Source: Paenibacillus curdlanolyticus YK9
Lineage (GTDB): Bacteria; Bacillota; Bacilli; Paenibacillales; Paenibacillaceae
Length of the DNA: 64,000 bases
NCBI RefSeq assembly: GCF_000179615.1
Contig: NZ_AEDD01000001.1
Span: forward strand, 248,001 to 312,000
Direction of reading: 5' to 3'
The notes under the pieces were generated by a model. The model saw only the letters and a program-made list of their open reading frames with translations. It was not told the origin of the DNA and searched no databases. The translations under genes were made by a program, and so were the position numbers. Each line of letters starts with the position of its first letter. Positions within the stretch are counted from its first letter, which is position 1. Below are positions 1 through 12,074 of this stretch, piece by piece.

Positions 1-557
1 AATCTCCAAGCAGCTTCGGAGGCAGCGGCGATGCTACTGGAGATCGTCCTCTCGTCGGAGCGCCTAAAGTTTCCGAATCCGAGCAACGGATAGGAACTGC
101 TGGCACCAGCGGGCAGAACAAGATCGAGAAAGTAACGCCGTATGCGGATGATCCCGCTGATCAGGATGAATATACGCCAAGCTACAAAGAGATTGCACCG
201 CTTGCACCGGCCGATGAAAGCACGAGCGACTCGAAGAGCGTTTCTGCCATTGTCAAAAACCAATACGGTCAGGCGATGAGCATTATGAGCGACGGCGCTG
301 CTTCGACATCAGCTGTGTCCAACGTAACGAATTCGCCAGATGGCTTGTATTCCGCTGCAATTATGGAGGGCGCGATATACATTTATACCATCCAAGAGGG
401 TACGGTCATGTATGAAGGCGTCAAGCACGCAGGTGAAACGAGCAACGTTTCATGGTCCGATGACAGCAAGGTTCTCTTCTTCGAAGTTAAGGATGCAGAT
501 GGCCAAACGACGCACTATAAAGTGGATACGGCGACATGGTCGGCATCAAAAGTCTAA
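1..557 (+). CDS. C-terminal part of an unidentified protein with a propeller-like tail
   Basis: The reading frame is open from base 3 and ends at a TAA at 555-557, so the gene begins before the window. The first ~85 visible residues are low-complexity and rich in Ser, Gly, Asp and Pro, like a linker. The last ~80 carry SPDG and SWSDDSKVLFF, the kind of strand-turn-strand motif seen in WD40/PD40 beta-propeller repeats of TolB-like proteins. Nothing catalytic is visible. I do not recognise the family and infer only a linker followed by a beta-rich domain, possibly outside the membrane. A hairpin terminator follows at 698-729, so it is probably not co-transcribed with holA. The 200 bases after the stop hold only hairpins. 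Confidence 0.6.
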   Translation, partial: SPSSFGGSGDATGDRPLVGAPKVSESEQRIGTAGTSGQNKIEKVTPYADDPADQDEYTPSYKEIAPLAPADESTSDSKSVSAIVKNQYGQAMSIMSDGAASTSAVSNVTNSPDGLYSAAIMEGAIYIYTIQEGTVMYEGVKHAGETSNVSWSDDSKVLFFEVKDADGQTTHYKVDTATWSASKV

Positions 558-697
558 ACAATCGGCACACATGCTGATGGTCTTGCGTATAGTATATGGA
601 AGGCGTCAGCGACGAGACCTTGACGTCGTATGACCATCTCCGCGGCGGGTACCATGGACCCGCACGGAGGATGTTTATATAGATGTTCAGGGACAGA

Positions 698-729
698 GGG
701 ATGGAGACTCGTACTCCATCCCTTTGTTG
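698..729 (+). terminator. Rho-independent terminator before holA
   Basis: A perfect 9-bp stem, GGGATGGAG (698-706) with CTCCATCCC (714-722), is followed by TTTGTTG. It sits 28 bases before the holA start and probably ends the upstream gene. Another imperfect hairpin (CTCCG...CGGAG with inner GGGT...ACCC) lies at 638-669. Confidence 0.7.
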
Positions 730-756
730 ATGAACGAATGCAGGGGGAAGCGGCAG

Positions 757-1812
757 ATGGAAGCGAAGGAAGCGATTAAGCAAATAAATAGCGGCAGCGT
801 GCGTCCGGTCTACGTTGCTTACGGCAGCGACCGTTATCGAATTGAGCAATTCGCGAATTTGATGGCGGACAAGCTGTTCAAGCCAGATGAGCGAGAGCTG
901 GGAATTGTGAAGTTCGACACGTCGGAAACCGCAATCGAGGAAGCGGCGGCTGAAGCCGAAACGATGCCGTTCTTCGTTGAACGCAAGCTCATCATGATTC
1001 GGGATGCTTCGGTGTTGGCGGCAGCAGGGGCGAATGCGAAGGAAGGCAAGATCGAGCATCGCGTCGAACGGATGCTGGAGTATATCGACAGTCCGTCTGA
1101 TACGACGGTCATCTTGTTTCTTGTGTATGCCGAGAAGCTTGATGAGCGACGGAAGCTGGTGAAGAAGCTCAAGGACCAGAATGCATTGATTGCGTTTAAT
1201 GAGCTGGATGGGCCCGAACTGCGGCGATGGGTCGTTCGAAGGGCATCGGAGCAGAACCGTGTCATGACGGAGGATGCAGCCGATTTATTAATTGCTCGCA
1301 CGGGCAATCGCCTGCAACAGCTATCCCAGGAGACGGACAAGCTATGCTTGCATGCAGGGGTGGACGGCACGATTGATACGCAGAGCGTAGAGCTGCTGAC
1401 CGCCTCGACGGTTGAAGAGGACGTGTTTGCGCTCATCGATGCAATCGCCAGCGTGCAGACGAGCAAGGCGCTCAAGCTGTATCGCGACCTGCTTCAACGC
1501 CGGGAGGAGCCGATTAAGATTGCTGCGCTTTTAGCGGTTCAACTAAGGCTTATGCTGCAGGTGAAGGAGTTGTCAGGCCAGCAGTATTCCCCGCAACAGA
1601 TGGCCTCTCAGCTAGGCGTGCATCCTTTTCGGGTGAAGCTGGCTTCGGAGAAGGCCTCCAAGTTTTCGATCGCGGGGCTGAGCAAGCAGCTAGGAGAGTT
1701 GGCAGAGCTGGATTATCGGATGAAGACGGGTCAAATTGATAAAACGCTCGGGGTAGAGCTTTTCTTACTTTCGTTCGGCAACGTTCAGCAGCTGCAGCAG
1801 CCCAGCCGATAA
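757..1812 (+). CDS. holA: DNA polymerase III subunit delta
   Basis: Clamp-loader delta subunit, which opens the beta sliding clamp during replication. The 351-residue length and the N-terminal GSDRY at residues 23-27, where other AAA+ clamp-loader subunits have a P-loop, fit HolA/YqeN. The C-terminal third (LYRDLLQRREEPIKIAALL and following helices) resembles the delta collar domain. I chose ATG 757 because AGGGGGAAG (742-750) is well spaced before it; TTG 724 and ATG 730 lack a good site and lie at the terminator tail. The gene between the upstream terminator and one at 1843-1893 is probably monocistronic. Its position before rpsT matches B. subtilis. Confidence 0.93.
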   Translation: MEAKEAIKQINSGSVRPVYVAYGSDRYRIEQFANLMADKLFKPDERELGIVKFDTSETAIEEAAAEAETMPFFVERKLIMIRDASVLAAAGANAKEGKIEHRVERMLEYIDSPSDTTVILFLVYAEKLDERRKLVKKLKDQNALIAFNELDGPELRRWVVRRASEQNRVMTEDAADLLIARTGNRLQQLSQETDKLCLHAGVDGTIDTQSVELLTASTVEEDVFALIDAIASVQTSKALKLYRDLLQRREEPIKIAALLAVQLRLMLQVKELSGQQYSPQQMASQLGVHPFRVKLASEKASKFSIAGLSKQLGELAELDYRMKTGQIDKTLGVELFLLSFGNVQQLQQPSR

Positions 1813-1842
1813 GGGTTAAACTCTCCTATTCGTACAACGTAC

Positions 1843-1893
1843 AAAAGCCATCGATTTATGCCCTTGTAAGAAGGTGTAATCGATGGCTTTTTT
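1843..1893 (+). terminator. Terminator of holA
   Basis: AAAAGCCATCGATT (1843-1856) pairs with AATCGATGGCTTTT (1878-1891), followed by more T. It is a strong stem with A and T tracts on its two sides. Confidence 0.85.
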
Positions 1894-1906
1894 AGATTGC
1901 GCCATG

Positions 1907-1943
1907 AAAAAACGGCTCCCTGTTCCGAAGAACAGTGAGCCGT
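1907..1943 (-). terminator. Terminator of rpsT (minus strand)
   Basis: Read on the minus strand, ACGGCTCACTGTTC pairs with GAACAGGGAGCCGT and runs into TTTTTT. It ends just beyond the rpsT stop, back to back with the holA terminator. Confidence 0.85.
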
Positions 1944-1949
1944 CATTCA

Positions 1950-2222
1950 TTAAGCTTGTGCCGAAAGGGCATTCAGCTTTTTAGCGAGACGGGATTTTTT
2001 GCGGGCAGCCGCATTTTTATGGATCAGGCCTTTCGTAGCCGCTTTGTCAAGCTTCTTCGAAGCAGCGACGAGAGCTACTTTAGCAACTTCTACGTCCGTG
2101 CCGGCGATCGCTTGATCTGCGGATTTAACGGCCGTGCGAAGAGCGGATTTTTGCGAAGCGTTTAAAGCGCGACGTTTCTCGCTTGTTTTCACGCGTTTAA
2201 TAGCAGATTTAATGTTTGGCAT
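1950..2222 (-). CDS. rpsT: 30S ribosomal protein S20
   Basis: A 90-residue, very basic protein beginning [18 protein letters not shown], typical of S20, which binds 16S rRNA early in small-subunit assembly. The start at 2222 is fixed by an AGGAGG on the minus strand (2231-2236). It is the only minus-strand gene in the first 26 kb and is transcribed away from gpr, as in B. subtilis. Codon use is biased to lysine/arginine-rich ribosomal style. A sigma-A-like promoter lies at 2279-2307 and a terminator at 1907-1943, so the gene is a single transcription unit. S20 often represses its own translation in other bacteria; the 56-base untranslated leader shows no obvious structure. Confidence 0.97.
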
Positions 2223-2278
2223 CACATTCACCTCCTGTAAAAAGGGAAAAAACCCAATACTGCAACACAACTTAAAAT

Positions 2279-2307
2279 ATCTTACCACGGGCAGGTCCAA
2301 AAAGCAA
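2279..2307 (-). promoter_or_regulatory. Putative sigma-A promoter of rpsT
   Basis: On the minus strand, TTGCTT (2302-2307), a 17-base spacer, then TAAGAT (2279-2284). Assigned by match to the -35/-10 consensus only. Confidence 0.5.
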
Positions 2308-2390
2308 TAGTTCAAGGATCTGTTATCCTGATAACATCTAATGAATTGTATCACAAGTCGTAACTGTAATCGAGTGAAATTAGTAATTTC

Positions 2391-2420
2391 GCATAGAAAA
2401 CACCTGCACTTCGCACACTA
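2391..2420 (+). promoter_or_regulatory. Candidate forespore (sigma-G/F) promoter of gpr
   Basis: GCATA (2391-2395), an 18-base spacer, then CACACTA (2414-2420), close to the sigma-G pattern GNATR / CATNNTA. In B. subtilis gpr is forespore-expressed, which agrees. Prediction by eye. Confidence 0.45.
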
Positions 2421-2451
2421 TAGTCAAATAAGGAAGGGGCAGGTACGACAT

Positions 2452-3459
2452 ATGGATCATCTCGATTTGCGGCAATATGCCGTTCACACCGATCTGGCGT
2501 TGGAGGCAAAGGAGCTTGCCGAGACTGCGAATGGCGGGCCGATACCCGGCGTATTGTCTGAGTTGTTGGATGAGGATGGCATTAAGGTGTCTCGTGTTCA
2601 TGTCCAGACGGAACAAGGCTCGCGAGCGATTGGCAAAATGCCAGGGCGGTACGTGACGCTTGAGATACCCGGTCTTCGCAATCAAGATACGGGACTGCAG
2701 GATAAGGTGGCAACGCGGTTTGCGCAGGAATTTGAGTCGTTCCTGGAACGCGCGGGTGTCGGCAAATCGGCTCGCATCTTGATCGCAGGATTGGGCAACT
2801 GGAACGTAACGCCCGATGCGCTTGGCCCGCTAGTCGTTGAGAACGTGATGGTTACCCGCCACTTTTTTGAGCTGATGCCTGATCAAGTGGCGCCCGGCTA
2901 TCGCGCAGTCAGCGCAGTAGCGCCCGGCGTGCTGGGCATTACGGGTATCGAATCGAGTGAAATTATACAGGGCATTGTAGAGAAAACGCGTCCGGATGCA
3001 GTCATCGCGATTGATGCATTGGCCTCGAAAGCGCTGGAGCGGGTCAATACGACGATCCAGATCGCGGACACCGGCATTCATCCGGGTTCAGGCATTGGGA
3101 ATAAGCGCAAGGGGCTGACCAAAGAGATTCTAGGCGTTCCCGTTATCGCAATCGGCGTACCGACGGTCGTGTTTGCTTCTAATATCGTGAATGATTGTAT
3201 GCGATTGCTAGAGGATCATCTCGCTGCTCACGCGGCGAACAGCGGAACGCAGATTATGGGCCTGATGCATAAAATGGATGAGAACGAGCGTCTCCAGCTG
3301 GTTCGCGAGGTGCTGCAGCCGCTTGGCCACGATCTCATCGTGACGCCGAAGGAGATCGATCAGTTTATTGAAGACATCGCAAACATCATTGCCAGCGGGC
3401 TGAATGCTTCGCTGCATGATGCGGTGGATACGTCGAACGTAGCGGCGTATACGCACTAA
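2452..3459 (+). CDS. gpr: Germination protease GPR
   Basis: Spore protease that degrades small acid-soluble spore proteins at germination. It is made in the forespore as a zymogen that trims its own N-terminus. The N-terminal region has the family's TDLALEAKEL motif (residues 13-22), where the propeptide junction lies, and the rest shows EQGSRAIGKMPGRYVTLE and GLGNWNVTPDALGP, both characteristic of GPR. The length of 335 residues is normal. Start chosen at ATG 2452 after AGGAAGGGG (2431-2439); the open frame goes back to 2341 but without a binding site. The terminator downstream has been split by an insertion sequence: its stem-loop is at 3495-3523, but its T tract now lies at 5105-5109. Confidence 0.95.
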   Translation: MDHLDLRQYAVHTDLALEAKELAETANGGPIPGVLSELLDEDGIKVSRVHVQTEQGSRAIGKMPGRYVTLEIPGLRNQDTGLQDKVATRFAQEFESFLERAGVGKSARILIAGLGNWNVTPDALGPLVVENVMVTRHFFELMPDQVAPGYRAVSAVAPGVLGITGIESSEIIQGIVEKTRPDAVIAIDALASKALERVNTTIQIADTGIHPGSGIGNKRKGLTKEILGVPVIAIGVPTVVFASNIVNDCMRLLEDHLAAHAANSGTQIMGLMHKMDENERLQLVREVLQPLGHDLIVTPKEIDQFIEDIANIIASGLNASLHDAVDTSNVAAYTH

Positions 3460-3494
3460 AGTTGATAAATTTGTACGAATGAATTCGTTGTGAA

Positions 3495-3523
3495 GAAGAG
3501 GCGCGACTCGGTCGCGTCTCTTC
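3495..3523 (+). repeat. Left copy of 29-bp target-site duplication (gpr terminator stem-loop)
   Basis: GAAGAG...CTCTTC stem-loop identical over 29 bases to 5076-5104. It is the stem of the gpr terminator, but here it runs straight into the IS end and lacks the T tract that the right copy keeps. Confidence 0.9.
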
Positions 3524-3550
3524 AGGCTGTCGAGAAAGTCTCGGCAGCCT
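3524..3550 (+). terminator. Hairpin at the left IS end
   Basis: AGGCTG-T-CGAGA (3524-3535), loop AAG, TCTCG-G-CAGCCT (3539-3550), followed by TTTCTT. It supplies a stem and a T-rich tail directly after the interrupted gpr terminator and may replace it. Confidence 0.55.
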
Positions 3551-3568
3551 TTCTTATGTGCATGTAAT

Positions 3569-3599
3569 TTAACACGACACCGCGTTAATATAGTATAAT
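3569..3599 (+). promoter_or_regulatory. Possible transposase promoter
   Basis: TTAACA (3569-3574), a 19-base spacer, then TATAAT (3594-3599), 32 bases before the likely transposase start. The -10 is perfect, the spacer slightly long. Confidence 0.4.
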
Positions 3600-3630
3600 A
3601 GTGGTAATAACTATGAACGGATGGTGTCGC

Positions 3631-4982
3631 ATGCTGCGTTCTAATCGAGATAAACAACAAAACTATGAGTTAGTCTCCATTGAAGATTTAGTTCCCGCTG
3701 ATCATATGCTCCGCAAGATCGATAAGTATATCGACTTTTCTTTCATCGATGAGAAAGTACGCCACCTTTACTGCCAAGATAACGGGCGTCCAGCCATCGA
3801 CCCCCTCGTGCTGTTCAAGATGATTTTTCTGGGTTACTTCTATGGCATTCGTTCGGAACGTCAATTGGAACGCGAAGTTCAAACCAACCTCGCCTACCGT
3901 TGGTTTCTTGGGCTTGGACTAACTGATCGAGTCCCTGATCACACGACGATTAGCTGGAACCGGCGAACCCGGTTCAAAGATACGTCTGTGTTCCAAGATA
4001 TTTTTGATGAGATTGTACTTCAGGCTGTGTCACATCGAATGATTGGCGGACGTGTCCTGATCTCCGATTCAACTCATGTAAAGGCTAATGCGAATAAACA
4101 TAAATACACGAAAGAGCAAGTGCAACAGAACACGCGGGATTACGTGGATGAACTGAATGCGGCGGTAGAAGCAGACCGTAAATCGCAAGGAAAAAAGCAC
4201 TAAAACCACGGGAGGAGGTGACGGAAGACAAGGAAGTGAAGGTTAGCACGACTGATCCGGACAGCGGATATATGTACCGAGAAGGTAAGCCGGAAGGCTT
4301 CTTCTACTTGGATCATCGCACAGTTGATGTGAAGTACAACCTAGTTACCGATGTTTTCGTCACCGCCGGCAATGTCCATGATTCCGTACCGTATCTTTCT
4401 CGTTTAGACCGTCAACGTCAGCGTTTTGGGTTTACAGTAGAGGCAGTTGCATTGGATTCCGGCTATTTGACGACTCCGATTTGCAAAGGATTAGAGAAAC
4501 GTAAAATCTTTGGTGTCATTGCACATCGACGATTCCATCCCACACAAGGCTTACATCCAAAATGGAAGTTTATCTATGATGCAGAACGTAATTTGTATGT
4601 TTGTCCGCAGCAGCAAGAACTGTCATACCGAACAACCGATCGACATGGCTACCGGCATTATGCGTCGGATCCAAAACAATGTGAAACATGTCCGATGCTG
4701 GAGCAGTGTACACGTTCCGCTACCAAACGCAAAGTGATCACCAGACATATTTGGGAAGACAGTAAAGAACAAGTGCGATTAAACCGCCTCAGTAAGTCGG
4801 GCAAAAGGCTCTACAAAAAGAGAAAAGAAACGATTGAGCGAAGCTTCGCGGATGCTAAACAGCTCCACGGGTTTCGCTATTGCCGTTTGCGGGGGTTAAA
4901 AAACGTGATGGAACAAGCGTTGATGACCGCTGCGGTGCAGAACATGAAAAAGATTGCCCTCCACCTCGAAAGGAGGGCGTAA
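3631..4982 (+). pseudogene. IS1182-type DDE transposase, split by a frame change at 4191-4203
   Basis: The first part (3631-4203) holds the N-terminal domain (LVPADHMLRKIDKYIDFSF, as in IS1182 proteins) and the first catalytic Asp in ISDSTHVKANAN. The second part (coding from about 4197 in the -1 frame to 4982) holds the second Asp in ALDSGY, a cysteine cluster (CETCPMLEQC) and the Glu in KETIERSFADAK. Neither half alone has a full DDE triad. The break is at G GA AAA AAG CAC TAA; one extra base after AAG would restore the family's usual GKKPLKP-like sequence, so a 1-base deletion is the simplest reading. But A AAA AAG (4191-4197) is a canonical -1 slippery heptamer in the correct phase, and slipping there joins the two parts, so an active frameshifted product is possible. 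Start uncertain (ATG 3613 or 3631). Confidence 0.8.
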
Positions 4983-5030
4983 GGCGTTAAACCACCCTTT
5001 TTGCCTTTAAATACAGCCTCGATAAAACAA

Positions 5031-5068
5031 AGAGAAACCCAGCGTTTTGAAAAAACGTGGGTTTCTCT
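5031..5068 (+). other. Hairpin near the right IS end
   Basis: AGAGAAACCCA (5031-5041) pairs with TGGGTTTCTCT (5058-5068), and CGTTTT (5043-5048) with AAAACG (5052-5057), leaving a tiny loop. A long stable stem just inside the right inverted repeat; it may block outside transcription or hide the transposase start on impinging transcripts. Confidence 0.55.
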
Positions 5069-5075
5069 ACAATCT

Positions 5076-5109
5076 GAAGAGGCGCGACTCGGTCGCGTCT
5101 CTTCTTTTT
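5076..5109 (+). terminator. Right copy of 29-bp duplication with the original gpr terminator T tract
   Basis: The same stem-loop as 3495-3523 (direct repeat 5076-5104), here followed by TTTTT. This is a complete terminator and shows what the uninterrupted gpr terminator looked like. Confidence 0.85.
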
Positions 5110-5191
5110 GCTTACTCCTAGTTCTAGCATGTCTCTTATTCTCATAAGTTAGTAACAGACTAAGAGCGGTTGATAGGGAGGATGGGCAACG

Positions 5192-6490
5192 ATGAAACGA
5201 ATGATCGTAACGTTCAATTGGAGTAGGGGAAGCCGGAAATGGAGGCAACTGCTCGTGACGGGCCGCACATTCGCGCTGCTGTCGATCAGTTCAATGGCGT
5301 TTTTTTTGGCTATCGGGATTGGCGACATGCTGCATCAACGGACGGCTGCGTCGCCTGTGTCGACGATGAAAGGGTTCGCTGCGAATGTTTCCGGAACGTT
5401 TTTCTCGGACATGCTAGAGATGGAAGTGCCTGCTTACTCGTCGGATCGCCAAGGAGATCGGGCATTGTCAGGAAAGCAGGTTAGCGCGTTTTTGATGAGA
5501 CTGGTAACGGACGTCAATCCGAATGATCCGAAAAGCTTGCTGGCTCGCGAATTTCCGGGCATGGCGACGGACGAGCCTTATTTGATACGAGGGTCGGGCG
5601 ATGCCGCGGCCGTTCAGCCTGATGATCAGGCTCCGATTGTTGGCGACCCTGATGCGAATGCTTCGCAGGGCAGCGGACATGCTGGTGAAGGGGATAACGT
5701 CAATGGCGGCTCTGGTGTTGGCAGCGGAGAGCTGGGGACGCCGCCAGAACATGGTTCTGGAGCGGGAGCTGGCGCTGGCGGAGATACGGGAACAGGCAAT
5801 GGAGGAACGAAGGAAGAGCCAGCGAAACCAACGGCAACAGGTGATCCGCTTGTGTTCATTTATCATTCACATAGCCGGGAGTCATGGTTCCCAGTCGTAG
5901 GCGGCGGAGGCAATGATCCGACCTCAACGAAGCAGAATGTTTCTTTGCTGGGCAAGCGATTAGCGGAGAAGCTGGAGGGGCTCGGCATTGGCGCGGAAAC
6001 CTCGAAGGTCGATTACCCGACAGCCATCAAAAATTATAAATGGGTGCTCTCCTACAAATATTCGCGTAAAACGGTGCAGGATGCGCTGGCATCCAATGAC
6101 CATTTGAAATTTATATTCGATATTCATCGCGACTCGCAAAAACGGAAGTATACGACGACTACGATAAACGGAAAAGACTACGCTCAAGTGTTCTTCATCA
6201 TTGGTCAGGAAAATCCAAATTGGCGCAAAAATGAAAAGCTGGCATCTGAAATCCATGAAGCGCTGGATGCGCAATATCCGGGCATTTCGCGTGGCGTGTG
6301 GGGCAAGACGTCCAAGGATGGCAACGGGGAATACAATCAATCGTTATCGCCGGGCAGCGTGCTGATTGAAATTGGCGGCGTTGACAACACGCTGGAGGAG
6401 TCATACCGAACGGCGGATGCGCTGGCCAAGGTAATTGCGCAAATCTATTGGGGCGATGCGAAGAAAGCGAGCGCGCCTAAGGAAAGCTAA
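5192..6490 (+). CDS. spoIIP: Stage II sporulation protein P
   Basis: Peptidoglycan amidase/endopeptidase of the SpoIIDMP complex, which drives engulfment of the forespore from the mother-cell side. One membrane segment lies near residues 24-46 after a basic cytoplasmic tip. Then comes a long Gly/Ser/Ala-rich linker (roughly residues 145-215), longer and more repetitive than I would expect. The catalytic domain follows: YHSHSRESW with H225/H227, FDIHRD with H312, and VLIEIGG with E393, matching the expected zinc and catalytic residues. ATG 5192 has AGGGAGGA nine bases upstream. CATAAGTT at 5143-5150 resembles a sigma-E -10 box but I see no convincing -35. The IS and its terminators separate this gene from gpr, so it must rely on its own promoter. 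Confidence 0.95.
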   Translation: MKRMIVTFNWSRGSRKWRQLLVTGRTFALLSISSMAFFLAIGIGDMLHQRTAASPVSTMKGFAANVSGTFFSDMLEMEVPAYSSDRQGDRALSGKQVSAFLMRLVTDVNPNDPKSLLAREFPGMATDEPYLIRGSGDAAAVQPDDQAPIVGDPDANASQGSGHAGEGDNVNGGSGVGSGELGTPPEHGSGAGAGAGGDTGTGNGGTKEEPAKPTATGDPLVFIYHSHSRESWFPVVGGGGNDPTSTKQNVSLLGKRLAEKLEGLGIGAETSKVDYPTAIKNYKWVLSYKYSRKTVQDALASNDHLKFIFDIHRDSQKRKYTTTTINGKDYAQVFFIIGQENPNWRKNEKLASEIHEALDAQYPGISRGVWGKTSKDGNGEYNQSLSPGSVLIEIGGVDNTLEESYRTADALAKVIAQIYWGDAKKASAPKES

Positions 6491-6573
6491 TTTAAAAGCG
6501 AATGAGGCGCGTCGCCGCTCACAGGAAGAGCGCGGCAGCGGCGGCGGATACGATAGAGAGGCAGGGAACGAGC

Positions 6574-7032
6574 ATGAAACGGGATGGCTGGAAATGGGCG
6601 TTGGTAGGCGGAGCAATCGCATTGTTAATCGTGTATGGGCTCGATTCGGCGGACCGCGGCATCACTAACGTTTACGGACCGGTGGGCGATAAGGCGGAGC
6701 CGCCTGCCGTGAACGGAACGACGCAGTCGTTTTCACCGGTGAACACTAGCGAGAGCAACACGTCCACTAACGTCGTTGAGGCCAATCCGAATCATCAGCT
6801 CGATGGCGGACAGCGTCAACCGGATCAGCAGCAGCAACAGCAAGCTGGTACTGGACGAAATGACGCGGTTGATCGGCAATCCGGCTCATCAGAGCGCCTG
6901 CCGGGCGTGACCTACGATTCAGATGAACCGGCCGTAAACAAGCTGGCTGACGGGGCAGCGGGCGTGCTGCAGTCGGTTTCAAGCGGCGGGATACGGTTGT
7001 TCGTCTCGGTTTTCGACGGCATTATTGATTAG
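6574..7032 (+). CDS. Membrane-anchored protein in the yqxA position
   Basis: A 152-residue protein starting MKRDGWKWALVGGAIALL; residues 8-24 form a single membrane anchor and the rest is predicted outside. The middle is low complexity, rich in Asn, Ser and Gln with a run of glutamines near residues 85-92. The end is a hydrophobic/amphipathic stretch, GGIRLFVSVFDGIID. Position between spoIIP and lepA equals yqxA of B. subtilis, but sequence similarity to YqxA is not obvious by eye, so function is left open. Start set at ATG 6574 after AGGCAGGGA; the frame extends to 6502 without a better site. It probably shares the spoIIP transcript. Confidence 0.75.
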   Translation: MKRDGWKWALVGGAIALLIVYGLDSADRGITNVYGPVGDKAEPPAVNGTTQSFSPVNTSESNTSTNVVEANPNHQLDGGQRQPDQQQQQQAGTGRNDAVDRQSGSSERLPGVTYDSDEPAVNKLADGAAGVLQSVSSGGIRLFVSVFDGIID

Positions 7033-7080
7033 AAGAAAATAGGAGAAGCGGATTGATGAAGCGGCTGCGGAGCACATCCG

Positions 7081-7109
7081 TTGCCGCTTCGTCCCATTAC
7101 TGCTATAAT
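7081..7109 (+). promoter_or_regulatory. Putative sigma-A promoter of lepA
   Basis: TTGCCG (7081-7086), 17-base spacer, TATAAT (7104-7109), 40 bases before the lepA start. Just upstream, GAAGCGGC pairs with GCCGCTTC (about 7058-7090) without a T tract, overlapping the -35. Confidence 0.65.
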
Positions 7110-7149
7110 TGAAAGGATAGTTAGCACTTAGACAGTGTGGGGGTTACGC

Positions 7150-8967
7150 ATGGCGGACGTTCGCGAAAGACAGAAGAAAATTAGGAATTTTTCCATTATC
7201 GCACATATCGACCACGGGAAATCGACGTTGGCGGACCGTATATTGGAATTTACGGGAGCGCTCTCCTCGCGTGAAATGCAGGAGCAGGTGCTCGACCAGA
7301 TGGATTTGGAAAGAGAGCGCGGCATTACAATAAAGCTGCAGGCTGTTCGTTTGGGCTACAAGGCCGATGATGGCGAAGAGTACATTTTGAACCTGATCGA
7401 TACGCCAGGGCATGTCGACTTCACGTATGAGGTATCGCGAAGCATGGCAGCCTGCGAGGGCGCGCTGCTTGTCGTCGATGCCGCACAGGGCATTGAAGCG
7501 CAGACGCTTGCCAACGTTTATTTGGCGCTTGACAGCAATTTGGAAATATTGCCGGTCATCAATAAGATCGACTTGCCGAGCGCGGAGCCTGAGCGGGTGA
7601 AGCAAGAAATCGAGGATGTTATCGGCCTCGACGCCAGCGATGCGGTTTTGGCTTCAGCCAAGGCGGGCATCGGCATCAAGGAGATTTTGGAGCAAGTGGT
7701 GCAGAAGGTGCCGGCGCCTACTGGCAATCCAGATGATCCGCTGAAGGCGCTGATCTTCGATTCCCATTATGACCCATACAAGGGCGTAATCGTTTACGTT
7801 CGCGTCATTGACGGCAGCATCAAGGCGGGCAAGAAAATTCGCTTCATGGCGACCGGTGCCGAATTCGAAGTTATCGAGGTTGGCGCGTTCAAGCCGCGCA
7901 TGTCCATCGTGGACGAGCTGGCTGTTGGAGACGTAGGCTTCGTCGTAGCGGGCATCAAGAACGTGAAGGATACGCGTGTCGGCGATACAGTCACGGAAGC
8001 GAAGCGTCCAGCACCAGAGGCGTTGCCGGGTTACCGGAAGATTAACCCGATGGTATTCTGCGGCTTGTATCCGATCGAGACGCAGGATTACAACGATCTG
8101 CGCGAAGCGCTAGAGAAGCTGGAGCTTAACGATGCTTCCTTGCGTTACGAGCCAGAGACATCAACAGCGCTTGGCTTTGGCTTCCGCTGCGGCTTCCTCG
8201 GACTGCTGCATATGGAGATCATTCAAGAACGCATTGAGCGCGAATTCAATATTCCGCTCATTACGACAGCGCCAAGCGTAGTTTATCATGTCACGCAAAC
8301 GAACGGAGAAGTGCTCCAAATCGACAACCCATCGAACTACCCGGAAGTCGGGAAGATCGATTTTGTTGAGGAGCCGTATGTAAAGGCATCCGTCATCGTG
8401 CCTAACGATTATGTTGGCGCTATTATGGAGCTTTGCCAGGGCAAGCGCGGCGAGTATGTGAACATGGAATACTTGGACACGAACCGCGTAACGCTGACGT
8501 ACGAAATTCCGCTTTCAGAGATTGTCTACGACTTCTTTGACCAGTTGAAATCGCGTACGAAAGGCTACGCTTCGTTCGATTACGAGCTGGCAGGCTATCG
8601 CCAGTCAAACCTCGTGAAGATGGATATTATGCTGAACAACGAGCAAGTTGACGCATTGTCCATCATCGTTCACCGCGATCGTGCTTACCACCGCGGCCGG
8701 GCGATTTGCGAGAAGATGAAAGAGCTGATCCCTCGCCAAATGTTCGAGGTACCGATCCAGGCGTCGATCGGAACGAAGGTCATTGCACGTGAAACGGTAA
8801 AAGCGATGCGCAAGAACGTATTGGCAAAATGCTACGGCGGCGACATCAGCCGGAAACGGAAGCTGCTGGAGAAGCAAAAAGAAGGCAAAAAGCGGATGAA
8901 GCAGGTCGGCAGCGTCGAGGTGCCGCAGGAAGCATTCATGGCGGTCCTGAAAATCGACGAGGGTTGA
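7150..8967 (+). CDS. lepA: Elongation factor 4 (LepA)
   Basis: Ribosome-binding translational GTPase that acts on stalled or misplaced ribosomes. The GTP-binding domain is intact: AHIDHGKST (residues 18-26), RERGITIK switch [15 protein letters not shown]. The remaining domains follow EF-G order without domain IV, and the LepA-specific C-terminus ([20 protein letters not shown]) is present. The 605-residue length is typical. ATG 7150 is preferred over the in-frame GTG 7135 because GGGGG (7139-7143) fits as its binding site. It has its own promoter and a terminator at 8987-9015, so it can be expressed independently of the sporulation genes upstream. Confidence 0.97.
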
Positions 8968-8986
8968 TCCGCCGTCATTCGAGCTG

Positions 8987-9015
8987 ACAGGGAGAGCGTA
9001 GCTCTTCCTGTTTTT
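8987..9015 (+). terminator. Terminator of lepA
   Basis: ACAGGGAGAGC (8987-8997), loop GTA, GCTCTTCCTG (9001-9010), then TTTTT. Confidence 0.85.
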
Positions 9016-9080
9016 CATATCTTATCGACTGAATCGGCTGCGCGCAGTCGGTGCAGTCAAGCAAGGAGGGCGTACTGCCC

Positions 9081-10250
9081 ATGCTTACACACGCGCCAAG
9101 AGCGCTTTACATTCATATCCCGTTTTGTACAAATAAGTGCCACTACTGCGACTTCAATTCCTTCGTCCTCAAAGGGCAGCCGGTAGACGCTTATCTAGAC
9201 GCGCTTGAGCATGAAATGCGTCTAACGGTAGAGGCGATGCCTCCTGTAGTGATTGACACCGTATTCGTCGGCGGCGGTACGCCGACCGTGCTGACGCCTC
9301 CTCAGATGGAGCGGTTTCTTGCGTCGGTTCGCCGCCATTTTCCGCTTGCTGCTGATGTGGAATTTACGATGGAAGCCAATCCTGGCACGACGGATTCGGA
9401 CAAGCTTGCTGCGATGTACGCTGGCGGCGTTAACCGCATCAGCTTTGGCGTGCAATCGTTCAATAACGATTTGCTGGCCGGCATCGGCCGCATTCATAAT
9501 ATCGACGACGTCTATCGGAGCATCGATAATGCGAAGAAGGCTGGATTCACGAACCTGTCGATCGACCTCATGTTCGGATTGCCGAAGCAGACGGTTGAGC
9601 TGCTGACAGATAGCGTGGACAAGGCATTGCAGCTGGGCTTGACCCACTACTCGCTCTATAGCTTGAAGGTAGAAGAGAATACGCTGTTCCATAAGCTGTA
9701 TGAGCGAAACGAGCTGCCGCTTCCAACCGAGGAAGAGGAACTCGCAATGTTCATGGTCGTCATGAATAAGCTGAAGGAAGCGGGCTACCGGCACTACGAG
9801 ATCAGCAATTTTGCGATTCCAGGCCTGGAGAGCCGCCACAACTCGACGTATTGGCGCAATGAGCCTTACTACGGTTTAGGCGCAGGTGCGCATGGCTATG
9901 CGCGAGGCGAGCGGCATCTGAACATAAAAGGCGTTCAGCCTTTCATTGATGCAGCGCTTGCTCGATTGCCGCGTCTGGAGACGACTCCGATCTCTGAAGC
10001 GGAAGCGATGGAAGACTTCATGATGGTTGGCTTGCGTCTGCTTGAAGGCGTACGCGGAGCAGCGTTCGAAGCCCAATTCCCTTCGCATACGATGGAAGGC
10101 GTGTTCGGCGGCATTCTTGAGCGGCTTGTTCGGGAAGGCTTGCTGGAAACGACGCCGGAACGAGGGTATCGTCTGACCGAGCGAGGCATTCCGCTTGGCA
10201 ACGAGGTGTTCGGCGCGTTCGTTGGCGTACTTCCGGCGACTGCGGAATAG
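9081..10250 (+). CDS. hemW: Heme chaperone HemW, radical SAM (HemN-like)
   Basis: Radical SAM protein of the HemN/HemW group. The iron-sulfur ligands are C16, C20 and C23 in CTNKCHYC, followed by DF. GGGTPTVL and EANPGT are the conserved radical SAM strands, and a HemN_C winged domain follows. At 389 residues and without the longer N-terminus of true HemN, it fits HemW, which inserts heme into partner proteins, rather than coproporphyrinogen dehydrogenase; the distinction rests on length and operon position. ATG 9081 follows AAGGAGGG (9063-9070). In B. subtilis the same gene sits between lepA and hrcA; here an acetyltransferase gene intervenes. Confidence 0.93.
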   Translation: MLTHAPRALYIHIPFCTNKCHYCDFNSFVLKGQPVDAYLDALEHEMRLTVEAMPPVVIDTVFVGGGTPTVLTPPQMERFLASVRRHFPLAADVEFTMEANPGTTDSDKLAAMYAGGVNRISFGVQSFNNDLLAGIGRIHNIDDVYRSIDNAKKAGFTNLSIDLMFGLPKQTVELLTDSVDKALQLGLTHYSLYSLKVEENTLFHKLYERNELPLPTEEEELAMFMVVMNKLKEAGYRHYEISNFAIPGLESRHNSTYWRNEPYYGLGAGAHGYARGERHLNIKGVQPFIDAALARLPRLETTPISEAEAMEDFMMVGLRLLEGVRGAAFEAQFPSHTMEGVFGGILERLVREGLLETTPERGYRLTERGIPLGNEVFGAFVGVLPATAE

Positions 10251-10265
10251 CGATTTATGATCTTG

Positions 10266-10302
10266 AAAACACCCGTTTCGCATATTGCGACGCGGGTGTT
10301 TT
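10266..10302 (+). terminator. Terminator of hemW
   Basis: AAAACACCCG (10266-10275) pairs with CGGGTGTTTT (10293-10302). Because of the A tract it could act in both directions. Confidence 0.85.
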
Positions 10303-10342
10303 GCTTATTGAATTGTTCGATTGGCGTATATAAAATTGGCTA

Positions 10343-10378
10343 TTGAGCAATCATTCGTTTTGATGTATATTTATACAT
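10343..10378 (+). promoter_or_regulatory. Promoter with ARG-box-like palindromic operator
   Basis: TTGAGC (10343-10348), 17-base spacer, TATATT (10366-10371). The -10 lies within a perfect palindrome, ATGTATA-TT-TATACAT (10363-10378). Its core TGTATATTTATACA differs from the ArgR/AhrC ARG-box pattern TGAATWWWWATTCA at only two fixed positions. The downstream gene is ArgA-like, which makes arginine control plausible. Confidence 0.5.
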
Positions 10379-10445
10379 ATTCTTTTAAAATCGGCGTTTT
10401 GCTTAAGGACGGCAGCCTTGGCGACGAGTGGAGGGGACGAGCGTA

Positions 10446-10916
10446 ATGATGCAAGCAATATGTACCTGCAGACCAGCAACGGAAGACGATGTCGAGGTTT
10501 TGTTTCATTTAATAAGCGGTTACGCAGAGAAAGGAATTATGCTCCCTCGAAGCAGAGAAGCGCTCAAGCGGCTGATCGGAACTTTCGTTGTAGCAGAGGT
10601 GGAAGGCGTCATTGTTGGCTGCGGCTCTTTGTGCCAGTTAGGCAAGGATCTCGTTGAAATTCGTTCCTTGGGCATCACGGATGGCTACAAGGGATTCGGT
10701 ATAGGAAGCAAGCTTGTAGATAAGCTGATCGAGCAAGCGCGGGAGCAGAACCTGACGAAGGTCATGGCGCTAACCTACGAGGATCGTTTTTTTGTGAAGA
10801 ACGGATTTAATGTGGTCGACAAAGAGATTTTCCCGGAAAAAGTATGGACCGACTGCGTAAATTGCCCGAAGCAAAAAAATTGCGATGAAATAGCTGTGCT
10901 TAAAGTACTGAACTGA
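10446..10916 (+). CDS. GNAT N-acetyltransferase, short N-acetylglutamate synthase-like
   Basis: A 156-residue single GNAT domain. The acetyl-CoA loop is GYKGFGIGSKLV; the preceding strand reads VEIRSLGIT and the following segment ALTYEDRFFVKNGF. This arrangement resembles the stand-alone ArgA-type acetyltransferases (short NAGS) that make N-acetylglutamate for arginine synthesis. The C-terminus has three cysteines, CVNCPKQKNC, which might bind a metal. Start ATG 10446 follows GGAGGGG; 10449 is also possible. The gene lies alone between the hemW terminator and the hrcA promoter, and its upstream operator resembles an ARG box. Substrate is inferred, not shown. ACTTGAC/GTCAAGT at 10916-10932 may be a weak terminator. 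Confidence 0.82.
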   Translation: MMQAICTCRPATEDDVEVLFHLISGYAEKGIMLPRSREALKRLIGTFVVAEVEGVIVGCGSLCQLGKDLVEIRSLGITDGYKGFGIGSKLVDKLIEQAREQNLTKVMALTYEDRFFVKNGFNVVDKEIFPEKVWTDCVNCPKQKNCDEIAVLKVLN

Positions 10917-10917
10917 C

Positions 10918-10947
10918 TTGACAATCGTCAAGTTGGTTTGGTATTTT
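10918..10947 (+). promoter_or_regulatory. Putative sigma-A promoter of the hrcA operon
   Basis: TTGACA (10918-10923), 18-base spacer, TATTTT (10942-10947). The CIRCE element begins just after the expected transcription start, the usual layout for HrcA-controlled operons. Confidence 0.6.
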
Positions 10948-10958
10948 TGTATTGACGA

Positions 10959-10985
10959 TTAGCACTCAACGACAATGAGTGCTAA
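10959..10985 (+). promoter_or_regulatory. CIRCE element (HrcA operator)
   Basis: TTAGCACTC (10959-10967), nine bases, GAGTGCTAA (10977-10985): a perfect match to the CIRCE inverted repeat bound by HrcA. It places hrcA-grpE-dnaK-dnaJ under heat-shock control. Confidence 0.97.
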
Positions 10986-11042
10986 CGGTCGAAGGGACAG
11001 CCGATATGCAGCATGAGCAGGAGATCAAGAGGAGGGGTTCGG

Positions 11043-12074
11043 ATGTTAACGGATCGACAACGTATGATATTAAACGCCATTGTAGACGATTATATTCGTT
11101 CGGCCGAGCCCGTCGGTTCTCGCAGCATTTCGAAGCGGGGAGACGTCGGCTTCAGCCCGGCAACGATTCGTAATGAGATGTCTGACCTTGAGGAACTTGG
11201 TTTTCTAGAGCAGCCGCACACGTCGGCGGGGCGTATCCCTTCGATCAAAGGGTACAGATATTATGTGGATCACCTCGTTAGGCTAGGCGAGTCGAACGTG
11301 AAGGAAATTACGAATTTCCGTTCGTTTTTCGCTGAGCGCATGACGGAGATAGAGCAGGTCACGCAGCAAGCGGCGAACATTCTTGCGAATATGACGAATT
11401 ACACGTCGATCGCGCTTGGGCCTGAGTCCCTTAATCATTCATTAAAGCATTTTCAACTCGTTCCACTGAACGCCGATACAGCCGTCGCGATTGTCGTGAC
11501 GAATACGGGCCATGTAGAGAACAAGATGGTATCTCTGCCGGAAGGCATCAGCATGTCGGATCTCGAGAAGACGGTCCATATCTTGAACGCGAAGCTGGCA
11601 GGCGTGCCAATGGTGCGACTGACCTCCAAGCTGTATACCGAGGTAGGGCAAGAGCTGAGCCGTTACGTTGACCATTACGAGAGCGTGCTGAATATGCTGG
11701 AGCGGGCGTTGCCTGCTGGCGAAGAAGCAGAACAGCGCGTGTATTTGGGCGGAACGACGAATATGCTGACACAGCCGGAATTCAAGGACGTCGATAAAGT
11801 AAAGACGCTGCTTGACCTGCTGGATGAGACGCCGACGCTGTCGCGCATGCTGTCCTCCGCGCCTTCAGGCATACAAGTGCGGATTGGTACGGAGAACGAG
11901 CACGAGGCGATTAACGATTGCAGCGTTATAACGGCAACCTATGCGATTGACGGACAATCGCTTGGCACGATTGGCATTCTTGGTCCAACAAGGATGGATT
12001 ATGCCAAAGTGATCGGTCTGCTCGATATTGTTTCCAAAGACATGGCGATGCTGCTGTCTCGTTGGTACCGTTGA
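11043..12074 (+). CDS. hrcA: Heat-inducible transcription repressor HrcA
   Basis: Winged-helix repressor that binds CIRCE and needs GroEL to stay active. The N-terminal DNA-binding domain is clear (LTDRQRMILNAIVDDYI, EPVGSRSISKR, SPATIRNEMSDLEELG, HTSAGRIPS, residues about 2-70), followed by the HrcA effector domain up to the AMLLSRW end. The length of 343 residues is standard. ATG 11043 follows GAGGAGGGG. The gene heads the heat-shock operon and should repress its own transcription through the CIRCE at 10959-10985. A gap of 76 bases separates it from grpE. Confidence 0.97.
   Translation: MLTDRQRMILNAIVDDYIRSAEPVGSRSISKRGDVGFSPATIRNEMSDLEELGFLEQPHTSAGRIPSIKGYRYYVDHLVRLGESNVKEITNFRSFFAERMTEIEQVTQQAANILANMTNYTSIALGPESLNHSLKHFQLVPLNADTAVAIVVTNTGHVENKMVSLPEGISMSDLEKTVHILNAKLAGVPMVRLTSKLYTEVGQELSRYVDHYESVLNMLERALPAGEEAEQRVYLGGTTNMLTQPEFKDVDKVKTLLDLLDETPTLSRMLSSAPSGIQVRIGTENEHEAINDCSVITATYAIDGQSLGTIGILGPTRMDYAKVIGLLDIVSKDMAMLLSRWYR

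What the first reader, a model, noticed from the sequence alone, without database searches (positions are those of the whole stretch)
3495..5109. IS inserted precisely at a terminator, duplicating the whole 29-bp stem-loop
The direct repeats flanking the element are exactly the hairpin of the gpr terminator. The left copy lost its T tract to the insertion, and the IS end itself supplies a hairpin plus TTTCTT in its place. The right copy keeps the original TTTTT. This suggests the transposase recognises palindromic stem-loops and carries a replacement terminator, so that insertion spares neighbouring gene regulation. From memory, IS1182 members make long, variable duplications; terminator choice at this precision deserves a check.
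Basis: partly seen in the sequence, partly recalled or inferred. Interest (0 to 1): 0.6.

Follow-up and report, generated by a model that had tools for sequence, protein, structure and literature searches.

The report
Jumping gene that duplicates whole hairpins
A common family of bacterial jumping genes (IS1182) inserts at the foot of DNA hairpins, mostly transcription terminators, and copies the entire hairpin to both sides of itself; the target seems to be chosen by its folded shape, and this explains why its flanking repeats vary so much in length.

Summary
A 1,554-bp IS1182-family element (window 3523-5076) sits at the gpr terminator, and the whole stem-loop is repeated on both sides. All five copies in the genome do the same at five different hairpins (22-29 bp). 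Orthologous sites in a sister species carry one hairpin each. Across close relatives, 102 of 112 copies have a direct repeat, and essentially all repeats are hairpins (16-42 bp; one weak 11-bp case); palindrome and repeat share a centre in 98/102. Sequence half-sites alone would give about 2% hairpins. Family-wide, 182 of 244 copies have a hairpin repeat of at least 14 bp, including Proteobacterial plasmids and Streptococcus phages. Three filled/empty pairs at 99.6-100% identity confirm that one hairpin became two. One derived clade instead makes 6-7-bp duplications at the centre of a symmetric site. Best mechanism: both IS ends attack the 5' feet of an extruded cruciform, so hairpin length sets duplication length. 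Wan et al. 2017 (PMC5678879) drew this pathway but showed only stem-loop replacement by IS1272. Inward terminators at the left end are real (85/91); that they exist to spare neighbouring genes is not shown.

The parts
2341..3459 (+). gpr (germination protease), upstream gene whose terminator is the target
   Evidence: Pfam Peptidase_A25 E 2.4e-128
3496..3522 (.). left copy of the duplicated stem-loop (27 bp; 29 bp, 3495-3523, if the ambiguous outer bases are counted)
3523..5076 (+). IS1182-family insertion sequence, 1554 bp, ends CAGGCTGTCGAGAAA...TACAATCTG
   Evidence: 5 copies in own genome define the ends
3524..3555 (+). IS left end: inward-facing intrinsic-terminator-like hairpin (AGGCTGTCGAGA AAG TCTCGGCAGCCT) plus TTCTT
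   Evidence: -20.5 kcal/mol; conserved in 85/91 distinct copies
3601..4203 (+). transposase ORF1 (DUF772, N-terminal part)
4191..4197 (+). A_AAA_AAG slippery heptamer, predicted -1 frameshift joining ORF1 and ORF2
   Evidence: -1 split in 72/91 distinct copies; synonymous excess 32:7 between two copies; IS1182/DUF772 frameshifting measured by others (PMC3711429)
4218..4982 (+). transposase ORF2 (DDE_Tnp_1_6 catalytic part)
   Evidence: NF033551 IS1182 E 8.2e-79, Pfam PF13751
5031..5068 (-). IS right end: inward-facing hairpin on the bottom strand followed by TTTGTTTT
   Evidence: -23.4 kcal/mol
5077..5103 (.). right copy of the duplicated stem-loop
5104..5109 (+). C+TTTTT, original T-tract of the gpr terminator, retained by the right copy
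   Evidence: one hairpin plus T-tract at the orthologous site of G003

Best explanation
The element is an IS1182-family insertion sequence whose DDE transposase chooses DNA palindromes able to extrude as stem-loops, most often bidirectional intrinsic terminators, and inserts at their base. SHOWN: the target duplication is the complete stem-loop, its length (16-42 bp) follows the hairpin, its centre is the palindrome's centre, and the cut falls at AAA^A just outside the GC-rich stem on both strands. INFERRED: the target is a cruciform (or paired hairpins). The two IS 3' ends attack the 5' foot of each strand's hairpin, points that are adjacent at the four-way junction whatever the arm length. 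Repair then copies each single-stranded hairpin and leaves one on each side. INFERRED: inward terminators formed by the IS ends shield the transposase gene and, incidentally, restore termination for the left gene, whose hairpin lost its T-tract. This is pathway b of the model in PMC5678879, which those authors drew but for which they reported no example. It appears to be the prevailing mode of the IS1182 family, with one derived clade switched to short central duplications.
For: 5/5 own copies. Orthologous single-hairpin sites for all five in sister species G003. Exact or near-exact filled/empty pairs: phage Javan87/Javan90 466/466 nt identical; B. pumilus pBP-T2 against NZ_MH539888 99.6%; E. 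faecium pSRR12 against NZ_CP058893 461/461. 102 of 112 close copies have TSDs, centre offset 0 in 98/102. About 8 of the 10 copies without a matching TSD still have a hairpin abutting both ends, as IS-IS recombination would leave. Half-site sequences alone would be hairpins in 1.9% of cases. 182/244 family-wide copies. The short-duplication clade has a single origin on the tree, support 100/99. No bias with respect to replication forks, 23/49, so nothing points to a lagging-strand single-strand target.
Against: Cruciform extrusion and the chemistry were not tested. The palindrome often extends several A:T pairs beyond the cut, so the cut is not simply the base of the longest palindrome, and the strong AAA^A preference means sequence also matters. 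One close copy (L194) has only a weak 11-bp palindrome. Insertions inside genes may have been lost by selection, which can inflate the share of terminators.
Confidence: 0.78

Rival explanations
1. The transposase recognises two inverted A-rich/T-rich half-sites in ordinary B-DNA with flexible spacing; terminators are hit only because they carry an A-tract and a T-tract about 20 bp apart.
For: Strong symmetric A preference at -3, -2, -1 and +1; targets are enriched for both tracts compared with other hairpins, 58% vs 8%.
Against: In 515 kb of host DNA, half-site pairs scoring as well as the targets are hairpins in only 1.9% of cases, while practically all targets are. The stem interior has little sequence preference but is almost fully complementary.
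Confidence: 0.08
2. The target is the terminating transcription complex (paused polymerase, RNA hairpin or R-loop) rather than a DNA hairpin.
For: 92% of targets look like intrinsic terminators on at least one strand.
Against: Most targets are symmetric, with no significant orientation preference relative to terminator polarity (13 vs 22, p = 0.18). Both strands are cut symmetrically, and some targets lack tracts. An RNA hairpin on one strand does not account for a symmetric double-strand stagger equal to the stem-loop.
Confidence: 0.07
3. A hairpin on single-stranded lagging-strand template at replication forks is the target, as for IS200/IS605.
For: Hairpins form readily on single-stranded DNA; hairpin choice is the common feature.
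Against: IS orientation shows no fork bias, 23/49, p = 0.78; the transposase is DDE, not HUH.
Confidence: 0.06
4. The repeats are not target duplications: the palindromes belong to the element or arise by later recombination or slippage.
For: Palindromes next to mobile elements can be part of element ends, and boundaries are ambiguous by one or two bases because stems are self-complementary.
Against: Each copy has a different palindrome; exact or near-exact empty sites hold one copy of the same palindrome.
Confidence: 0.01

Closest known systems
IS1272 / TnSha1 (IS1182 family, staphylococci; PMC5678879, PMC4923244)
   Same: Same family; targets stem-loops without primary sequence consensus, often transcription terminators; no orientation bias reported.
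   Different: IS1272 removes part or all of the stem-loop and leaves no duplication; the element here keeps and duplicates the whole stem-loop.
Cruciform model, pathways b and c, of Wan et al. 2017 (PMC5678879 Fig. 13)
   Same: Pathway b (attack at the 5' feet, whole stem-loop duplicated) is what is seen here; pathway c (loop duplicated) resembles the derived short-TSD clade.
   Different: It was drawn as a possibility to explain IS1272 pathway a; no natural example of b or c is given in the text read.
IS1182 family as curated (ISfinder; ISBspe1, ISEfa7, IS1562, ISCfr1)
   Same: Transposase family NF033551; an ISBspe1-annotated copy and a copy annotated as IS1562 were read here and both duplicate a hairpin. 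That some members target palindromes is stated by Siguier et al. 2015, as quoted in PMC4923244.
   Different: The exact equality of duplication and stem-loop across the family was not found stated in the papers that could be searched; ISfinder and TnPedia could not be consulted. ISCfr1 and most ISEfa7 copies read here show no such repeat.
REP-targeting ISs (e.g. IS1397, IS621; recalled, see also PMC1525189, found and not read)
   Same: Insert into palindromic repeats.
   Different: From memory: sequence-specific for REP and duplicate few or no bases; other transposase families.

Membership tests
IS1182 family | Transposase matches the IS1182 family model and carries DUF772 + DDE_Tnp_1_6 | tested here: met
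   NF033551 best hit for both ORFs (3.6e-63, 8.2e-79; each half is below the whole-protein cut-off because the ORF is split), PF05598, PF13751
IS1182 family | Length about 1.3-1.95 kb with terminal inverted repeats | tested here: met
   1554 bp; ends CAGGCTGTCGAGAAA / CAGATTGTAGAGAAA; the length range of the family is from memory
IS1182 family | Variable-length, often palindromic direct repeats | tested here: met
   22-29 bp in own genome, 16-42 bp in relatives
IS1272-type stem-loop replacement | Stem-loop deleted, no target duplication | tested here: not met
   Stem-loop present on both sides in all five own copies
Cruciform pathway b (whole stem-loop duplication) | Duplication equals the stem-loop and one copy is present at the empty site | tested here: met
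Cruciform pathway b (whole stem-loop duplication) | Extruded cruciform is the actual substrate | not testable with these tools
   needs biochemistry
IS200/IS605-like single-strand transposition | HUH transposase and replication-linked orientation bias | tested here: not met
   DDE transposase; 23/49 co-directional

The most novel reading that the evidence does not exclude
A large DDE transposase family integrates mainly at extruded DNA cruciforms, so the target is defined by secondary structure and the duplication length is set by the hairpin and not by the transpososome; the geometry then changed once within the family, to short central duplications, and IS1272 represents a further change, to deletion.
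Probability: 0.6. Interest if true: 0.75.

Novelty: new variant of a known kind. Interest (0 to 1): 0.58.

Why it matters
Target duplication length is normally a fixed property of a transposase. Here it is variable and fixed by the target's own hairpin, which resolves the odd variable-length repeats of the IS1182 family and offers natural evidence that hairpins or cruciforms form at terminators in living cells. It gives a simple test bed for structure-directed DNA integration, and predicts that these elements settle between genes at terminators, where they are least harmful.

Tried and rejected
Replication-fork orientation bias: none. Sequence half-sites as the only determinant: rejected. A loose terminator scan of IS ends gave 26% background in host DNA and was replaced by a strict scan. 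Siguier 2014 and 2015 reviews are not held. IS1272 itself was not placed on the tree because its sequence was not retrieved. ISEfa7 and ISCfr1 copies gave mostly no matching TSD and were counted among the copies without a hairpin repeat, as rearranged or undetermined. Rfam gave nothing in window 1-12000. Papers on Geobacillus IS transposition and the sil locus held nothing on this.

Full report
What is there. The window holds an IS1182-family element between gpr and spoIIP. The 29-bp repeats at 3495-3523 and 5076-5104 are identical and palindromic. The genome has five full copies, four identical and one 97% identical. Their flanks fix the ends of the element as C...G, 1,554 bp (3523-5076), and the target duplications as AAGAGGCGCGACTCGGTCGCGTCTCTT (window), AGAGACCGGTTTTATCCGGTCTCT, GCTGCCCTCCTATGGAGAGCAGC, AAGGTACCCGCAAGGGTACCTT and AAAAGAGCAGTCATAATGACTGCTCTTTT. 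All five are complete stem-loops of different sequence and length.

Empty sites. In the sister species G003 the gpr-spoIIP spacer holds one hairpin of related sequence with its T-tract, and the orthologues of the other four sites also hold one hairpin each. Three pairs outside the genus are exact or nearly so: Streptococcus phage Javan87 (filled) against Javan90 (466/466 nt identical to the reconstructed empty site), Bacillus pumilus plasmid pBP-T2 against NZ_MH539888 (99.6% over 468 nt), and Enterococcus faecium pSRR12 against NZ_CP058893 (461/461). One hairpin before, two after.

Close relatives. Among 112 distinct copies with intact ends and flanks (64-100% identity), 102 have a direct repeat, 16-42 bp apart from one of 11 bp. 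Practically all are hairpins. The centre of the palindrome is the centre of the repeat in 98/102. The first base is A in 89 and the last T in 93; A dominates at -3 and -2; the usual cut is AAA^A followed by the GC-rich stem. Of the 10 copies without a repeat, about eight have a different hairpin abutting each end, as expected after recombination between copies. Random windows score as palindromes in 0.12%.

Structure or sequence? Using a weight matrix of the half-sites, 13,709 pairs of host positions score as well as the upper three quarters of the targets, and only 1.9% of them are hairpins. So the fold, not the A/T half-sites alone, makes the target. Still, targeted hairpins have an A-tract and T-tract far more often than other hairpins (both: 58% vs 8%; either: 92% vs 24%), so bidirectional terminators are preferred, or survive best.

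Whole family. In 244 distinct full-length copies of wider origin, 182 carry an exact repeat of at least 14 bp that scores as a hairpin (16-42 bp, median 23); the three long repeats that failed the score are imperfect hairpins or fragments of one by eye. They come from many Bacilli and other Bacillota, from plasmids of Enterococcus, Staphylococcus, Providencia, Rhizobium and Vibrio, and from Streptococcus phages. One clade of Paenibacillaceae elements (G052, G259, G264, G270) differs: 6-7-bp duplications in the middle of an imperfectly symmetric site. On a maximum-likelihood tree this clade has a single origin (100/99) inside the hairpin-duplicating elements. The tree used only copies that could be labelled, and its root is a midpoint.

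Mechanism. A DDE transposase normally gives a fixed stagger. [quoted passage not shown] Repair then copies each hairpin strand. Wan et al. (PMC5678879) drew this as pathway b, beside pathway a (replacement, shown for IS1272; also PMC4923244) and pathway c (loop duplication), without natural examples of b or c in the text read. The data here supply b on a large scale; the derived clade superficially fits c, although a conventional symmetric B-DNA site explains it as well. Replication-linked hairpins are not favoured: orientation is unbiased, 23/49 (dnaA positions, test).

Terminators in the element. The left end folds as a 12-bp hairpin followed by TTCTT (-20.5 kcal/mol); the right end, read inward on the bottom strand, folds at -23.4 kcal/mol with TTTGTTTT. 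A strict scan finds an inward terminator at the left end in 85/91 distinct close copies, against 9/2055 host windows; at the right end in 39/91 (in the window copy the right-end hairpin has a bulge and fails the strict scan). Thus the gpr transcript still meets hairpin plus T-rich tract after insertion. Shielding of the transposase gene is the more economical reason; benefit to the host is not shown.

Transposase expression. The gene is split into two frames joined by A_AAA_AAG; 72 of 91 distinct close copies have this -1 arrangement, 16 a single ORF, and substitutions between two own copies are 32 synonymous to 7 non-synonymous codons. Frameshifting of this class (DUF772 cluster, IS1182) was measured by others, up to 24% (PMC3711429).

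Novelty. Hairpin choice by IS1182 members was known; whole-stem-loop duplication was proposed. What seems new, within the papers that could be searched, is that duplication of the complete stem-loop is the ordinary mode of the family, with its precise cut rule and a single switch to another mode. ISfinder and TnPedia were not available and may record parts of this.

Noticed in passing
window 4191-4197: Conserved A_AAA_AAG slippery heptamer joins the two transposase frames; -1 split in 72/91 distinct copies, single ORF in 16.
   Followed up: yes
L203-L221 (G270, G052, G259, G264): Sister IS1182 clade with 6-7-bp duplications at the centre of an imperfectly symmetric site (e.g. AACTGC-ACATTT-GCAGTT); one switch on the tree.
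   Followed up: partly
L006, L007, L008 (G000 C27:91371, C34:145898, C38:237183): Solo copies of IS-end hairpins in the host genome, acting as or resembling terminators; L007 is a right-end remnant still abutting a hairpin.
   Followed up: no
L007 and L008, beside the solo ends: Tandem repeats of several tens of bases containing GGGATAGGGAAG / TTCCCTATTC motifs.
   Followed up: no
L037, L040, L078, L081, L086, L106, L132, L175: Copies with a different whole or near-whole hairpin at each end: apparent footprints of recombination between IS copies, usable to trace rearrangements.
   Followed up: partly
L318, L319, L321, L322: ISEfa7 copies on Enterococcus faecium plasmids mostly lack matching repeats; some ends still abut imperfect hairpins.
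   Followed up: no
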